Shown here piece by piece: positions 18,440 through 23,638 of a DNA stretch of 64,000 bases. Source of the DNA: Phycisphaerales bacterium (lineage in GTDB: Bacteria; Planctomycetota; Phycisphaerae; Phycisphaerales; SM1A02); NCBI GenBank assembly GCA_009691915.1, contig SIAD01000001.1, forward strand, positions 372,001-436,000, written 5' to 3'. Position 1 is the stretch's first letter. Every line of letters begins with the position of its first letter. The translations under genes were made by a program, and so were the position numbers. The notes under the pieces were generated by a model. It had not been told where the DNA came from, ran no database searches, and saw nothing but the letters and a program-made list of their open reading frames with translations.

Positions 18440-18716
18440 GGGACCATTCCGACACCCTCCGACAATGCCTGCACAGGCGCAGCGCTACGACCGTGGACTG
18501 CGGAACCCCTGCAAGCTATTGGCGTGCATACCGTTGCCACCAGGAAGGCGCCAATTCCGGAGGTTACCCACATATTGTGATCTCCACTCTTGTCACCACT
18601 AGATGTTGGGGTATCGTGAAGCCCGCGTCGGTGGGGCATTGGGTTTCACCAACGCATGTGTGGGTCGTCTGGCTGGGTCATGTGGGCCTTTCCAGACCGT
18701 GTGTGAGGAGTACCCG
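18440..18716. other. intergenic region between divergent uvrD and dcd
   Basis: About 280 bases without a convincing gene. The last part, TGTGTGAGGAGTACCCG before the ATG at 18717, carries a GAGGAG Shine-Dalgarno, so dcd has a true 5' leader, in contrast to uvrD. No long inverted repeat is evident. Confidence 0.5.
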
Positions 18717-19304
18717 ATGGGCATTCTGTGTGACACGCAGATTCGAGAACTCGTCGGAATCGAGCCATTCGAAGAGAGCCGGAAGCGCCAAGGAGTGATC
18801 TCCTTCGGAGTATCCAGCTACGGCTACGACGTTCGAGTCGGCACGAGATTCAAGATCTTCACCAATGCGACCTCAGGCGGAGTAGCCGTCGTCGATCCCA
18901 AGGCGTTCTCCAGCGATCTCTTCATCTCCATCGACACGACTCAGACAGGCCGCGACCATGTCGTGATTCCTCCTAACTCCTTCGCCCTCGCCGAGACCGT
19001 CGAGATCTTCACGGTGCCACGCGATGTTCTGGCGATCTGTGTCGGTAAGTCGACCTACGCCCGATGCGGAATCATCGTGAATGTCACACCGCTCGAACCG
19101 GAGTGGCGCGGCAAGGTCACAATCGAGATCTCAAACACCACGCCGCTGCCCGCCAAGATCTACGCCAACGAGGGAATCGCCCAGATGATCTTCCTCAAGG
19201 CCGACAAAGTCTGCTCCACCAGTTACGCCGACAAGGGTGGCAAGTATCAGAACCAGCTAGGTCTCACACTCCCCCGAGTCGACGGCTTCTCCCACTCCAC
19301 CTGA
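18717..19304 (+). CDS. dcd: dCTP deaminase
   Basis: The 195-residue enzyme deaminates dCTP to dUTP for dTTP synthesis. It has the trimeric dUTPase/Dcd fold signature with [52 protein letters not shown]; within this the Arg, Ser and Glu residues are the substrate-contacting positions of the family. The ATG at 18717 follows a strong GAGGAG Shine-Dalgarno. It sits directly before the ribonucleotide reductase gene, so two steps of deoxynucleotide supply are adjacent. Confidence 0.93.
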
Positions 19305-19320
19305 ACCCTCCCCCGCACTC

Positions 19321-19344
19321 GAGGGCGTCCTCCGCGCCGCCCTC
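19321..19344 (+). terminator. GC-rich hairpin after dcd
   Basis: GAGGGCG (19321-19327) pairs with CGCCCTC (19338-19344) around a 10-base loop. No T-tract follows, so it may be a weak terminator or only a barrier between dcd and nrdJ. Confidence 0.35.
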
Positions 19345-19406
19345 CGCACTGTCACGCCTGTTTGCTTTCCGTTCACTCCCGACCAAGATCCCGCAGGACG
19401 CTCCCA

Positions 19407-22400
19407 ATGAAGATTGCCCGACGATTCACTCGACCAGACACGGATGTCTATTCAACCTTCGAGTGGTCGACTCGCTCCAGCAAGATCCGAAACCCGGACG
19501 GCAGTGTTGTCTTCGCCATGGATGACGCTCAGGTCCCCAAGGAGTGGAGCCAGCTCGCCACCGACATCGTCGTGAGCAAGTACTTCCGCAAGGCTGGAAT
19601 TCCGCAGATTTCTGCTGACGGCTCCTCGACTACAGGCCCGGAGCGAAGCGTGCGCCAAGTGGTCCACCGGCTCGCGGGATGCTGGCGACACTGGGGAGAG
19701 ACCCACGGCTACTTCGATGCGACCGAGGATGCACAGGCGTTCTATGACGAGATCGCGCACATGCTTCTCAGCCAGATGGCCGCACCCAACAGTCCCCAGT
19801 GGTTCAACACCGGGCTCGCGTGGGCTTACTCGATCAACGGACCTGCGCAGGGTCACTGGATCGCCGATCATCAGACGGGCGATGTGCGCCTCGCCCCCGA
19901 TTCCTATACCCACCCCCAGCCACATGCCTGCTTCATCCAGGCGGTCCGCGACGACCTTGTCAATGAAGGGGGCATCATGGATCTCTGGACGCGCGAGGCG
20001 CGTCTGTTCAAGTACGGCTCGGGGACCGGCACGAACTTCTCCTCGCTGCGCGGAAATGACGAGCCACTCTCCGGCGGCGGAAAGAGTTCGGGGCTGATGA
20101 GTTTCCTTCGGATCGGTGACCGAGCGGCCGGTGCAATCAAGTCCGGCGGCACCACTCGGCGCGCGGCGAAGATGTGTTGTCTCGACATCGACCATCCGGA
20201 TATCGAGGTGTTCATCAACTGGAAGGTCCGAGAGGAGCTCAAGGTTGCCGCGCTCGTCGAAGGGATGAAGAACCTCTCTCCGGAGCAGCGTGCGCTGGCT
20301 CAGCGGCTGGGTCTCGCTCTCGATTACGACTTCAACGGCGAGGCGTACTACACGGTTAGCGGACAGAATTCGAACAATTCGGTTCGACTCTCCGATGCCT
20401 TCATGGACACGGTCAACTCCGATGGCCCGTGGACGCTCTATCGGCGGATCGACGGTGAACCGGCGAAGTCCCTGCCGGCGCGCGATCTGTGGAGCCAGAT
20501 CACCGAGGCGGCATGGCACTGCGCGGATCCCGGCATTCAGTACGACTCGACCATCAATGCCTGGCACACCTGTCCCGCGGGCGGACGCATCAATGCCAGC
20601 AATCCGTGTAGTGAGTACATGTTCCTCGACAACACGGCGTGCAATCTGGCGTCGATCAATCTGCTCAAGTTCTATGACTCGAGAGCACGCGAGTTTGATC
20701 TCGAGGGATACGAGCATGCGATCCACCTCTGGACAATCGTGCTGGAGATCTCGGTGCTCATGGCGGCTTTCCCGTCACGGGAGATTGCGGAACTCTCATG
20801 GCGGTATCGCACACTTGGCCTCGGCTACGCCAACCTCGGCGCGATGTTGATGCAGGCGGGCACTCCCTACGACAGCGACGAGGGTCGAGCCCTGTGCGGT
20901 GTCATCTCGGCCATTCTCACCGGCCGCTCCTATGCGACGAGCGCACTCCTTGCCTCCGAGCACGGGGCGTTTGAAGGATTCGACGAAAACCAGGAACACA
21001 TGCTGCGCGTGATCCGCAACCACCGCCGCGCGGCGCATGGTGTGGCGCGTGCAAACGACGAGTACGAGGGACTCCACAAGCGCCCCGTTCCAATCCGCCA
21101 TGACCTCTTTACCCAGGGGAAGGTCAACATAGCAAACGCCGGCGCGATGCTCACACGCGCAACCTCCTGCTGGGACGAAGCACTCGCACTGGGCGAAGCC
21201 TACGGCTACCGAAACGCGCAGGTATCGGTGATCGCACCGACCGGAACGATCGGTCTTCTCATGGACTGCGACACAACCGGCGTCGAGCCCGACTTTGCCC
21301 TGGCAAAGTTCAAGAAGCTCGCCGGAGGCGGCTACTTCAAGATCGCCAATCAGTCACTGCGTCCGGCACTCGCCGCGCTTGGCTACCCGCCGAGCGAGAC
21401 CGACGCCATCGTCACCTATGTGATGGGAACACTGAGTCTGGATACTCCCGTCCCGGGGGGCGATGGCACGGAGATCCCTACTCTGCGCACGCTCCGCAGC
21501 GAGTTGGTAGACAAGGGATTCACCGGCGAAGATCTTGTAAAGATCGAGAACGCGCTGCCCACGGTGTTTGAACTCGGGTTCGCGTTCACCGCGTGGACGA
21601 TCCCCGACGGGATTCTCGCCTCGTTGGGCCTCGACGCCGAGAAGGCGCGTACCGACGCGAAGTTCAACGGACTCCGGACGCTCGGCTTCTCGCGAGCGCA
21701 GGTCGAGACCCTCAATCGGATCATCTGCGGAACCCAGACGGTCGAGGGAGCTCCGCACCTCAAGGACGAACACCTGAGCGTCTTTGATTGTGCCAATCGA
21801 TGCGGGATCATCGGTCAGCGGTTCATCCGCCCCGAGGGACACATCCACATGATGGCCGCCGCGCAGCCCTTCATCTCCGGCGCGATTTCCAAGACCATCA
21901 ACCTCCCCCATGAGGCGACAGTCGAGGAGATCGGTGCCTGCTACCAGCTCTCATGGGAACTAGCCCTGAAAGCCAACGCCCTCTACCGGGACGGGTGCAA
22001 GTTGAGCCAGCCGCTGTCGACGAAGGTCGATGCGTCAGACCACGCGGAACCAGAGGACCTCGAAGGCACCGAAGCCGCCAAGGTGGTCGAACCTCAACTC
22101 ACGGCGCCGGTGGTCGCACTCGTCGAAACCGTGACGAGAACCGTGGAGATCGAGCGGGTGGTCGAGCGCATTGTCGAACGGATCATCGAACGGCCGATGC
22201 GTCGGCGACTCCTTGATACGAGGGCGTCGATCACGCACAAGTTCAATGTGGGTGGCCATGAGGGCTATCTCATCGTCGGTCTCTACGAAGACGACCGCCC
22301 CGGCGAACTATTCATCACGATGGCCAAGGAGGGATCGACCATCGGCGGACTCATGGACTCGCTGGGAACAGCCATCAGCGTCGCGCTTCAGTATGGGGTG

Positions 22401-22934
22401 CCGGTCGAGAGCCTGGTCAACAAGTTTGCGCATCAACGATTCGAACCGATGGGAATGACGACCAACAGCGACATTCCCTTTGCCAAGAGCCTCGTCGACT
22501 ACATCTTTCGCTGGCTGGGGATGCAGTTCATCGACGGCTATCGGGAGGCGAACTCGCCCAAACGAGTCGCCTCTATCTCTGGGGACGACACTTCCGCTCC
22601 GACCGCCACCCACGCCCCGGAGAAACCGGTGTGGAACGGTCCACGATTCTCCTCGGACATCGCGCGGTCGATGCCTCGGGTTACACCGAGTCAGGCGGCC
22701 GCACCCTCTGCACCCATCAGTCCGATGGCCGACCTGACTTCGCACTTCGGACCCATCATTGCTGAGCGCGGCGAGCTTCGCCGTGACGGCATGGTGATGC
22801 CAAGCGCCCAGGACCAGGCCAACGCTCAGATGATGGGTGACGCTCCGCCCTGCGATGTGTGCGGCGCGATCACCGTTCGCAATGGAACCTGCTACCGCTG
22901 CTGGAACTGCGGGCACAGCATGGGATGCAGCTGA
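19407..22934 (+). CDS. nrdJ: class II (adenosylcobalamin-dependent) ribonucleotide reductase with TSCPD domain
   Basis: The 1175-residue protein reduces ribonucleoside di- or triphosphates with a B12-generated thiyl radical. It shows HACFIQAV, the loop INASNPCSEYMFLDNTACNLASINL with active-site Cys, PTGTIGLLMDCDTTGVEPDFALAK and the finger-loop region. After the catalytic domain there is a charged linker with repeated VER/IVER units (about residues 907-927), a TSCPD domain (about 930-1040) and a C-terminal zinc/redox tail CDVCGAITVRNGTCYRC...CGHSMGC. ATG 19407 is used; there is no clear Shine-Dalgarno and no cobalamin riboswitch signature in the 100 bases upstream. Confidence 0.95.
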   Translation: MKIARRFTRPDTDVYSTFEWSTRSSKIRNPDGSVVFAMDDAQVPKEWSQLATDIVVSKYFRKAGIPQISADGSSTTGPERSVRQVVHRLAGCWRHWGETHGYFDATEDAQAFYDEIAHMLLSQMAAPNSPQWFNTGLAWAYSINGPAQGHWIADHQTGDVRLAPDSYTHPQPHACFIQAVRDDLVNEGGIMDLWTREARLFKYGSGTGTNFSSLRGNDEPLSGGGKSSGLMSFLRIGDRAAGAIKSGGTTRRAAKMCCLDIDHPDIEVFINWKVREELKVAALVEGMKNLSPEQRALAQRLGLALDYDFNGEAYYTVSGQNSNNSVRLSDAFMDTVNSDGPWTLYRRIDGEPAKSLPARDLWSQITEAAWHCADPGIQYDSTINAWHTCPAGGRINASNPCSEYMFLDNTACNLASINLLKFYDSRAREFDLEGYEHAIHLWTIVLEISVLMAAFPSREIAELSWRYRTLGLGYANLGAMLMQAGTPYDSDEGRALCGVISAILTGRSYATSALLASEHGAFEGFDENQEHMLRVIRNHRRAAHGVARANDEYEGLHKRPVPIRHDLFTQGKVNIANAGAMLTRATSCWDEALALGEAYGYRNAQVSVIAPTGTIGLLMDCDTTGVEPDFALAKFKKLAGGGYFKIANQSLRPALAALGYPPSETDAIVTYVMGTLSLDTPVPGGDGTEIPTLRTLRSELVDKGFTGEDLVKIENALPTVFELGFAFTAWTIPDGILASLGLDAEKARTDAKFNGLRTLGFSRAQVETLNRIICGTQTVEGAPHLKDEHLSVFDCANRCGIIGQRFIRPEGHIHMMAAAQPFISGAISKTINLPHEATVEEIGACYQLSWELALKANALYRDGCKLSQPLSTKVDASDHAEPEDLEGTEAAKVVEPQLTAPVVALVETVTRTVEIERVVERIVERIIERPMRRRLLDTRASITHKFNVGGHEGYLIVGLYEDDRPGELFITMAKEGSTIGGLMDSLGTAISVALQYGVPVESLVNKFAHQRFEPMGMTTNSDIPFAKSLVDYIFRWLGMQFIDGYREANSPKRVASISGDDTSAPTATHAPEKPVWNGPRFSSDIARSMPRVTPSQAAAPSAPISPMADLTSHFGPIIAERGELRRDGMVMPSAQDQANAQMMGDAPPCDVCGAITVRNGTCYRCWNCGHSMGCS

Positions 22935-22958
22935 CCAATGAACAATGAACACAACAAC

Positions 22959-22999
22959 GCACCCGAGGCATCGCACTACTCCGACGGTGCCTCGGGTGC
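22959..22999 (+). terminator. 12-bp hairpin just after nrdJ
   Basis: GCACCCGAGGCA (22959-22970) is perfectly complementary to TGCCTCGGGTGC (22988-22999), with a 17-base loop, beginning 24 bases after the nrdJ stop. There is no T-tract, so it may be an mRNA 3' end stabiliser or the first helix of the structured region that follows. Confidence 0.55.
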
Positions 23000-23000
23000 A

Positions 23001-23202
23001 CCAGATATCGCAGTGGATCAGGCCCTGGGAGAATGGTGCGGTAGGCGAGTGAACGGATTTTCCTTGCACTGGCTGGATACGCACGGAAACGGTGAATTCC
23101 AGCCCCCTGCCGGCGGGGAGAACCCGGCTGATCCAGGGTGACCGACACCCAGGGCTGACCACTGCGAAGTGTTGCGAGGTTCAGGACGGACCTCGAGAGA
23201 TT
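23001..23202 (+). ncRNA. candidate structured RNA between nrdJ and the Dabb lipoprotein gene
   Basis: This 340-base gene-free region holds a closing helix between 23009-23029 and 23148-23166 (19 base pairs with two single-base bulges). Inside it are GGCTGGA/TCCAGCC (23071-23077 with 23098-23104), GCCGG/CCGGC (23109-23113 with 23124-23128) and GGGTG/CACCC (23136-23140 with 23146-23150). An alternative helix, GGATCAG (23015-23021) with CTGATCC (23128-23134), competes with the closing helix. A Rho-independent terminator follows at 23203. It may be an independent small RNA or a riboswitch-like leader of the next gene. I do not recognise 6S, SRP, tmRNA, RNase P or a known riboswitch. Confidence 0.5.
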
Positions 23203-23242
23203 GCCCCCGCCGAAGCGACTGCCTGCCTCGGCGGGGGCTTTT
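23203..23242 (+). terminator. Rho-independent terminator
   Basis: GCCCCCGCCGA (23203-23213) pairs with TCGGCGGGGGC (23228-23238), an 11-bp perfect stem with a 14-base loop, followed at once by TTTT. It ends 33 bases before the Dabb gene and closes the structured region. Confidence 0.85.
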
Positions 23243-23262
23243 CATTGCGCGACGCCAAGGCG

Positions 23263-23268
23263 TAGGCT
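23263..23268 (+). promoter_or_regulatory. -10 element of the Dabb lipoprotein gene (leaderless type)
   Basis: TAGGCT ends 7 bases before the ATG at 23276 and lies downstream of the terminator, so the gene can be expressed independently of the RNA before it. Confidence 0.5.
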
Positions 23269-23275
23269 CGCCGCC

Positions 23276-23638
23276 ATGAGAACCGTGTTGCAAGTCATCG
23301 TGATCACCGCCCTAAGCGCGTGCAGTGCGACACCCACGCCTTCGTCGATCCATCATGTGGTCTTCCTCAAGCTCAAGGATCCTGGGGAGATCGCCGCGCT
23401 CGAACGGTCCTGCAACGAGCTTCTCGTGCCCATTCCAGGAGTCATCGAATACGCCTCCGGACGGCCCGTCGACACCGGTCGCGCCGCGGTCGAACGCGAC
23501 TACGACATAGCGATCCTCGTCGTCTTTCCCACCGCCGCCGAGTATCAGGCCTACCTCGTCCATCCAAATCACGACGCGCTCGTGAAGGAATGGAAGCCGC
23601 GCTTCGCCTCGATGCGAATCTACGACTTCAGTCCCTAG
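23276..23638 (+). CDS. Dabb (stress-responsive A/B barrel) domain lipoprotein
   Basis: The 120-residue product has a short signal with a Cys in a lipobox-like context (ALSAC, about residue 15), then HHVVFLKLKDPGEIAALERSC and a final DYDIAILVVFPTAAEYQAYLVHPNHDALVKEW, which is the Dabb ferredoxin-like barrel pattern. Members are small dimeric proteins of uncertain function; a membrane-anchored form is common in planctomycetes. The stop overlaps the fbp stop by four bases (CTAG) in tail-to-tail arrangement. Confidence 0.85.
   Translation: MRTVLQVIVITALSACSATPTPSSIHHVVFLKLKDPGEIAALERSCNELLVPIPGVIEYASGRPVDTGRAAVERDYDIAILVVFPTAAEYQAYLVHPNHDALVKEWKPRFASMRIYDFSP

What the first reader, a model, noticed from the sequence alone, without database searches (positions are those of the whole stretch)
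22959..23242. Large structured RNA candidate between nrdJ and a Dabb lipoprotein gene
The only gene-free stretch over 300 bases holds a 12-bp hairpin, then a 19-bp closing helix (23009-23029 with 23148-23166), at least three inner stems, an alternative helix that breaks the closing helix (23015-23021 with 23128-23134), and an 11-bp stem with TTTT. The competing helices resemble a riboswitch or a regulatory RNA. It may be an independent RNA or an attenuated leader. I could not match it to 6S, SRP, tmRNA, RNase P or cobalamin riboswitch consensus.
Basis: seen in the sequence. Interest (0 to 1): 0.65.

Follow-up and report, generated by a model that had tools for sequence, protein, structure and literature searches.

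The report
CsrA-binding RNA downstream of nrdJ
Just after a gene for making DNA building blocks, this planctomycete carries a folded non-coding RNA whose hairpin loops look built to hold the global regulator CsrA, a kind of RNA control known so far mainly from gamma-proteobacteria.

Summary
Window 22959-23242 encodes a non-coding RNA ending in an intrinsic terminator; it is more stable than 200 of 200 shuffles (z -10.7) and covaries (33 of 70 pairs with double changes in 18 same-genus sequences). No Rfam match. A model search found it in 62 of 301 genomes of the order; it lies directly 3' of nrdJ in 18 of 18 genus and 45 of 46 other loci (one starts too near its contig end). Of 62 columns invariant in the genus, 10 stay invariant in 46 distant homologues; eight are A.GGA in two hairpin loops (A-N-GGA, N free), the CsrA/RsmA consensus, 28-32 nt apart. 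nrdJ-downstream regions that the DNA or model search had missed also carry A-N-GGA loops (rank 1 of 256 loop patterns; 1.28 per region against 0.10 in control windows). The genus keeps a CsrA (18 of 19) but no FliW (0 of 19). Best reading: a CsrA-binding, probably CsrA-sequestering RNA from the nrdJ 3' UTR. Binding, processing and function are inferred; there are no expression data. Riboswitch or attenuated leader: not supported.

The parts
19362..22934 (+). nrdJ, class II B12-dependent ribonucleotide reductase; constant upstream neighbour
   Evidence: PF08471 and PF02867; upstream, same strand, in 18/18 genus and 45/46 distant loci
22959..22999 (+). 5' hairpin; loop holds the conserved CUCCGA (22979-22984)
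   Evidence: 12 of 13 pairs with double changes; CTCCGA within 260 nt of the nrdJ stop in 16/18 genus, 32/45 distant and 15/29 search-missed regions
23008..23167 (+). core domain closed by helix P1 (23008-23024 with 23152-23167)
   Evidence: 9 of 16 P1 pairs with double changes
23039..23144 (+). P2 (CGGU 23039-23042 with ACCG 23141-23144), closing the junction of P3-P6
   Evidence: 93% of cells paired, no double changes
23045..23067 (+). P3 hairpin presenting the first CsrA-type site
   Evidence: 97.6% of cells paired in the genus; 91.5% in 46 diverse sequences
23053..23057 (+). site 1, A-N-GGA (ACGGA here) in the P3 loop
   Evidence: A, G, G, A invariant in 64 of 64; N = U45 C12 A7
23071..23104 (+). 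P4 hairpin presenting the second CsrA-type site
   Evidence: 6 of 7 outer pairs with double changes over 46 sequences
23083..23087 (+). site 2, A-N-GGA (ACGGA here) in the P4 loop
   Evidence: A, G, G, A invariant in 64 of 64; N = C42 U11 A9 G2
23105..23118 (+). P5 (CCCU/GGGG)
   Evidence: 100% paired but nearly invariant in the genus; degenerate in many distant homologues, by eye
23123..23138 (+). P6 (CCC/GGG), weakly supported
   Evidence: 90.7% paired, no double changes
23175..23195 (+). 3' hairpin with loop AGGAC (23183-23187): possible third CsrA-type site, A(-)GGA class
   Evidence: 6 of 9 pairs with double changes; loop AGGAC in 17 of 18 genus sequences, AGGAU in L005; also in L086, absent from most distant ones
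23203..23242 (+). intrinsic terminator of the transcript
   Evidence: helix conserved, 4 of 13 pairs with double changes

Best explanation
The element is a non-coding RNA of the Csr/Rsm kind. It is transcribed with, or just after, nrdJ and ends at its own intrinsic terminator. A branched, covarying scaffold holds two hairpins (P3, P4) whose loops begin with A-N-GGA about 30 nt apart, and in this genus a third hairpin with an AGGA loop. A CsrA dimer is expected to clamp the P3 and P4 loops, so the RNA would titrate CsrA from its mRNA targets and couple CsrA activity to nrdJ transcription. Shown: sequence and structure conservation, synteny, invariance and enrichment of A-N-GGA loops, presence of a CsrA and absence of FliW in the genus. 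Inferred: CsrA binding, sequestration as the function, and origin from the nrdJ 3' UTR.
For: Of 62 columns invariant in 18 genus sequences only 10 are invariant in 46 distant ones; 8 of the 10 are the A.GGA letters of the two loops (hypergeometric P 1.3e-8 if columns were independent). N takes three or four bases. GGA-GGA spacing is 28-32 nt in 64 of 64. In 29 nrdJ-downstream regions from genomes that an earlier search had missed, A-N-GGA with GGA in a hairpin loop is 1.41 per 300 nt against 0.08 in shuffles, rank 1 of 256 xNyzw loop patterns, and 1.28 per region against 0.10 in 750 control windows of the same loci, many of them coding; some hold 5-8 A-N-GGA in 300 nt. CsrA (PF02599) in 59 of 61 relatives and 18 of 19 of the genus; the CsrA of this genome matches solved CsrA-family chains over residues 1-62 of 69 with the VHR segment kept. 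FliW in 0 of 19 genus genomes, 39 of 61 overall; all 22 genomes without FliW also lack the high-scoring CsrA type, and the RNA was found in 21 of those 22. Passages of PMC4005645 and PMC7652899: the A and GGA of ANGGAN are contacted by RsmE, N is variable, a hexaloop on a stem binds best. For the 3' UTR origin: no sigma-70-like promoter, no conserved block between the nrdJ stop and the 5' hairpin, no extra synonymous constraint at the nrdJ end, core 51-514 nt after the stop in 63 of 63 measured.
Against: No expression, binding or processing data. The genus RNA has only two A-N-GGA loops plus one AGGA loop, fewer than CsrB (recalled). In single-sequence minimum-energy folds the genus set ranks A-N-GGA only 6th of 256 and 1 of 18 has two or more such loops; in the genus the P4 loop can form an extra C-G pair beside GGA. 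Loops of 8-9 nt should bind less tightly than a hexaloop (PMC4005645). Four of six f2 genomes have at most one A-N-GGA there and none in a loop; f6 has loop sites in 0 of 5 and f5 in 2 of 6, although these families keep a CsrA. The third site is mostly absent outside the genus. Selection by the model favours motif-bearing homologues; the search-missed set only partly removes this (8 of those 30 loci still gave a model match up to E 1, one of them strong).
Confidence: 0.68

Rival explanations
1. The RNA is a cis element of the nrdJ mRNA: CsrA (or another GGA-loop binder) on the 3' UTR controls nrdJ mRNA stability, with no titration of CsrA.
For: Constant linkage to nrdJ; A-N-GGA also between nrdJ and its terminator in several f5 genomes, in short tails.
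Against: Several loop sites and an elaborate scaffold look more like a sponge; regions with five or more A-N-GGA in 300 nt exist. Not excluded.
Confidence: 0.17
2. An independent sRNA gene with its own promoter inside the end of nrdJ, acting through CsrA (a version of the best explanation that differs only in how the RNA is made; the odds overlap).
For: Self-contained fold with terminator and a strong 5' hairpin.
Against: No promoter-like site at sigma-70 level and no reduced synonymous change at the nrdJ end; planctomycete promoters may differ, so weak.
Confidence: 0.25
3. A riboswitch or attenuated leader of the Dabb lipoprotein gene.
For: The alternative helix exists in this one sequence.
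Against: The alternative helix is not conserved; no Rfam match; the Dabb gene is found in only 7 of 18 and 15 of 46 loci held; a terminator separates them.
Confidence: 0.03
4. A structured RNA whose A-N-GGA loops serve another protein or a tertiary contact, for example a base-pairing sRNA whose conserved CUCCGA 5' loop targets mRNA.
For: The CUCCGA loop on a covarying stem is unexplained by CsrA.
Against: A fixed A.GGA with free N in loops is the CsrA signature, and it is the top loop pattern also in the search-missed regions, some with a different scaffold.
Confidence: 0.12

Closest known systems
CsrB/CsrC and RsmX/Y/Z sRNAs (Gammaproteobacteria)
   Same: Non-coding, terminator-ended, several A(N)GGA motifs in hairpin loops, CsrA in the same cell
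   Different: No Rfam match; a compact multibranch scaffold with two invariant sites instead of many repeats; in the nrdJ 3' region; another phylum
TwoAYGGAY (RF01731) and Bacillaceae-1 (RF01690), predicted CsrA-binding RNAs outside Gammaproteobacteria (PMC4333381, passages read)
   Different: No match in cmscan; other phyla; here N is not restricted to Y and the synteny is fixed
RsmU of Xanthomonas (PMC7694677, abstract and passages read)
   Same: RsmA-binding RNA with GGA motifs made from an mRNA 3' UTR
   Different: Parent gene predicted to encode ComEA; suggested there to be limited to one genus; experimentally shown; its function did not depend on the predicted GGA motifs
FliW-CsrA control (Bacillus, Campylobacter; PMC7652899, PMC4894983, passages read)
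   Same: The other known way of restraining CsrA
   Different: A protein antagonist; FliW was not found in this genus (0 of 19)

Membership tests
Csr/Rsm-type CsrA-sequestering sRNA (functional class) | Non-coding transcript with intrinsic terminator | tested here: met
   No conserved frame; conserved terminator. Transcription itself not shown.
Csr/Rsm-type CsrA-sequestering sRNA (functional class) | Several A(N)GGA motifs in hairpin loops | tested here: met
   Two invariant A-N-GGA loops in 64 of 64 plus one AGGA loop in the genus; enrichment. Weaker in single-sequence folds of the genus.
Csr/Rsm-type CsrA-sequestering sRNA (functional class) | CsrA encoded in the same genome | tested here: met
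   G000:C6:19342-19506, PF02599
Csr/Rsm-type CsrA-sequestering sRNA (functional class) | Binds CsrA and relieves its targets | not testable with these tools
   Needs gel shifts, reporter tests or RIP-seq
CsrB, CsrC, RsmY, RsmZ, TwoAYGGAY as Rfam families | Match to the covariance model | tested here: not met
   No match of any Rfam family up to E 5 over 22700-23500; only tRNAs in 12 related loci up to E 1
Riboswitch (cobalamin or other) | Known aptamer, conserved switching helix, upstream of the controlled gene | tested here: not met
   no aptamer; the proposed switch helix is not conserved; conserved neighbour is upstream
6S RNA | Match to RF00013 | tested here: not met
   No match in the window or the genome
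3'-UTR-derived sRNA | Directly downstream of an ORF, same strand, ending at a terminator | tested here: met
   Core 51-514 nt after the nrdJ stop in 63 of 63 measured loci; a TTTT within 200 nt after the core in 56 of 63
3'-UTR-derived sRNA | Released by processing of the mRNA | not testable with these tools
   Needs 5' end mapping

The most novel reading that the evidence does not exclude
A planctomycete branch of RNA control of CsrA, embedded in the 3' UTR of the ribonucleotide reductase mRNA, that ties global post-transcriptional regulation to DNA precursor synthesis and is the only candidate CsrA antagonist in lineages that have lost FliW.
Probability: 0.42. Interest if true: 0.78.

Novelty: new variant of a known kind. 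Interest (0 to 1): 0.64.

Why it matters
How CsrA is controlled outside Gammaproteobacteria is open: a 2014 paper states that CsrA-sequestering sRNAs had been identified only there (PMC4333381), and a 2015 paper suggests that Planctomycetes may use FliW (PMC4682653; passages read). Here is a conserved RNA with the CsrA signature in planctomycetes that keep a CsrA and lack FliW. It offers a small, defined binding test and a possible link between ribonucleotide reductase expression and the Csr system.

Tried and rejected
Coding region: rejected (indels not in threes, frames not conserved). 6S, RNase P, SRP: rejected; tmRNA only by cmscan and ARAGORN on the window, not searched in the genome. RNase P-like letters (AGAACCCGGCU) in this sequence are not conserved in all relatives. 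Riboswitch switch helix: rejected. A pairing partner for the CUCCGA loop (the P4 5' strand or the GGUCGG of the core) was examined by eye and fits only some sequences; left open. Co-occurrence of the RNA with the divergent CsrA type is suggestive (21 of 22 genomes without FliW), but most f2 and f6 genomes have that CsrA and no loop sites after nrdJ, so a strict dependence is not claimed. Weak model-R2 matches outside the family (E 0.001-0.01: G070, G691, G935) were only re-listed and are not counted as homologues.

Literature limits: 10 of 10 paper searches used. 'nrdJ' with 'CsrA' gave 0 papers. 'CsrA', 'Planctomycetes' and 'sRNA' gave 6, of which I saw passages of 3. 'CsrA' with 'Planctomycetota' gave 4, judged off topic from the listing and not opened. 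The library holds open-licence papers only. I therefore say only that these searches showed no report of such an RNA in Planctomycetota.

Full report
What is there. Between nrdJ (stop at 22934; PF08471/PF02867) and a Dabb-domain gene (ATG at 23276; PF07876) lies a gap of 341 bases. The reported helices are present. The + strand of 22959-23242 folds with z -10.7 against 200 dinucleotide shuffles, the minus strand with z -7.3. The only terminator-like sites on the + strand of 22600-23400 are two overlapping readings of the hairpin at 23203-23242. Rfam has no match at gathering scores over the window or up to E 5 over 22700-23500.

Homologues in the genus. A DNA search of 61 genomes (60 relatives and the window's own) matched 21. 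Eighteen are of the window's genus g1, itself included, out of 19 genus genomes in the set. Of the three others, the short matches in G043 and G055 cover only the terminator end of the query and were dropped; the short match in G020 lies inside what the model later found as a true homologue (G020:C1:27417-27561, L085). The genus genome without a match, G007, shows only a weak NrdJ-like fragment, so its nrdJ locus appears to be missing from the assembly. All 18 lie directly after nrdJ. Aligned, they give eight helices in the structure tested: 95.1% of cells paired, 33 of 70 pairs with double changes, none of 500 shuffles as high, and slid versions far below. The structure came from RNAalifold on the same sequences, so the count of paired cells leans towards it. 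The 5' hairpin (12 of 13 pairs with double changes), P1 (9 of 16) and the 3' hairpin (6 of 9) carry most covariation; P2, P3, P5 and P6 rest on conservation, with no double changes in the genus.

Not a protein. Core lengths differ by non-multiples of three, and the three frames are open through the core in 1, 5 and 7 of 18.

Distant homologues. A covariance model of the core (R1) matched 62 of 301 genomes drawn from the order at E 0.01 or better, all in the window's family, in 18 of 147 genera, one place per genome. Sixteen of the 62 are of the genus; with two more genus genomes this gives 64 sequences, 18 genus and 46 other. nrdJ lies upstream on the same strand in 45 of the 46 others; in the exception, L080, the core begins 198 nt from the start of the contig. 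The core begins 59-133 nt after the nrdJ stop in the genus and 51-514 nt after it in the 45 others. The Dabb gene is found in 7 of 18 and 15 of 46 loci, not always adjacent, and some loci are short. A second model of the P2-P4 part (R2; on its 46 sequences 69 cells with double changes against 22.9 in shuffles) matched 27 of 397 genomes of the class and 12 of 392 of the phylum; outside the family only three weak matches (E 0.001-0.01) were listed. A pattern scan of named genomes gave 26 stretches, all metagenome-assembled or uncultured and labelled as planctomycetes or, in three cases, 'uncultured bacterium'.

The key result. Sixty-two columns are invariant in the 18 genus sequences; 10 remain invariant in the 46 others. 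Eight of these are the A, G, G, A of an A-N-GGA motif in the P3 loop (23053-23057) and in the P4 loop (23083-23087). The N is free: U45 C12 A7 and C42 U11 A9 G2. The two GGA are 28-32 nt apart in 64 of 64. This is the consensus bound by CsrA/RsmA/RsmE: passages of PMC4005645 and PMC7652899 describe an ANGGAX loop on a stem with contacted A and GGA and variable N. PMC4333381 notes that such motifs generally occur in pairs because CsrA is a dimer. In the genus a third hairpin has the loop AGGAC (17 of 18; AGGAU in L005), like the A(-)GGA class of RsmZ stem-loops in PMC4005645.

A test on regions that searches had missed. I fetched NrdJ matches in 30 genomes: 20 listed as without a match, and 10 missed by the DNA search. 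Twenty-nine gave a true nrdJ end (G007 did not); 23 are of the family, 6 of other families. In the 300 nt after the stop, A-N-GGA with GGA in a hairpin loop occurs 1.41 times against 0.08 in shuffles (1.16 against 0.07 in 45 distant hits, 1.22 against 0.09 in the genus). Among 256 xNyzw patterns in hairpin loops, A-N-GGA ranks first in the missed set and in the distant hits, and sixth in the genus. Control windows from the same loci, both strands, many of them coding, plus the reverse strand of the regions, have 0.099 per window (750 windows), against 1.28, 1.00 and 0.83; two or more such loops occur in 10 of 750 controls, 12 of 29, 14 of 45 and 1 of 18. Eight of the 30 loci still gave an R1 match up to E 1, one of them strong (L154, 42 bits), and R2 later matched several, so these are diverged homologues rather than unrelated sequences.

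Other families. Loop sites after nrdJ are found in 6 of 6 f4, 1 of 1 f3, 2 of 6 f2, 2 of 6 f5 and 0 of 5 f6 genomes, against 20 of 24 missed family genomes, 33 of 45 distant hits and 16 of 18 of the genus. The letters GGCRAGHGRANGGA follow nrdJ within 600 nt in 42 of 87 f1, 6 of 6 f4, 1 of 1 f3, 2 of 6 f2, 0 of 6 f5 and 0 of 5 f6. Several f5 genomes have repeated ACGGA in a short tail.

The protein side. CsrA is found in 59 of 61 relatives, 18 of 19 in the genus. In the genus it is a single, divergent type; in this genome it is 69 aa and matches solved CsrA-family chains over residues 1-62, with the VHR segment kept. Most other relatives have in addition a high-scoring CsrA, which in G020, for example, lies beside fliW. 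FliW is found in 39 of 61 but in 0 of 19 of the genus. All 22 genomes without FliW (the genus and G019, G023, G035) lack the high-scoring CsrA, and the RNA was found in 21 of the 22. So this RNA is kept where FliW is gone.

How it probably works. nrdJ transcription runs to the terminator at 23242; the 3' part folds into a stable scaffold that shows two, in the genus perhaps three, GGA loops; CsrA dimers bind and are kept from their mRNA targets. Steps shown: fold, synteny, loop invariance and enrichment, presence of CsrA. Steps inferred: transcription from the nrdJ promoter, processing, CsrA binding, titration. The absence of a conserved block in the spacer, of a sigma-70-like promoter and of extra synonymous constraint at the nrdJ end favour the 3' UTR origin but do not prove it. 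A precedent is RsmU of Xanthomonas, processed from a 3' UTR and binding RsmA, although its function did not depend on its predicted GGA motifs (PMC7694677, abstract and passages).

Against it. No transcript or binding data. Few sites in the genus RNA, loops of 8-9 nt rather than 6, a possible extra C-G pair in the genus P4 loop, and a weak showing of the sites in minimum-energy folds of the genus. Families with CsrA but mostly without loop sites exist (f2, f5, f6). The conserved CUCCGA loop of the 5' hairpin is unexplained.

Compared with what is known. It works, on this reading, like CsrB/RsmZ RNAs; it matches no Rfam family. TwoAYGGAY and Bacillaceae-1 are earlier predictions of CsrA RNAs outside Gammaproteobacteria (PMC4333381, passages). 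My searches showed no report for Planctomycetota (open-licence papers only).

Noticed in passing
22979-22984 and homologues: The 5' hairpin has a strongly covarying stem but a conserved loop CUCCGA, also in many distant homologues; possibly an antisense seed for GGAG-type ribosome binding sites or a tertiary contact.
   Followed up: partly
G000:C6:19342-19506 (L131) and relatives: The genus lacks FliW and has only one, divergent CsrA, while most relatives have a high-scoring CsrA as well (in G020 beside fliW); all 22 FliW-less genomes of 61 lack the high-scoring CsrA.
   Followed up: partly
L207, L210, L211, L212 (family f5), first 150 nt after nrdJ: Short nrdJ tails with repeated ACGGA between the stop and the terminator, perhaps a reduced form of the same RNA.
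   Followed up: no
L013, between nrdJ and the RNA: Tandem repeats of a 10-base unit (CGTCATTGCA) in the spacer; L005, L006 and L008 have a smaller duplication.
   Followed up: no
18603-22934: A dCTP deaminase-like gene (PF22769) directly precedes nrdJ, so the RNA follows a nucleotide metabolism gene pair.
   Followed up: no
L090, L092, L093, L094, L095, downstream of the RNA: The terminator stretch looks partly duplicated in tandem after the RNA.
   Followed up: no
G000 whole genome: No 6S RNA found with RF00013, so 6S of this lineage is absent, diverged or in an assembly gap.
   Followed up: no
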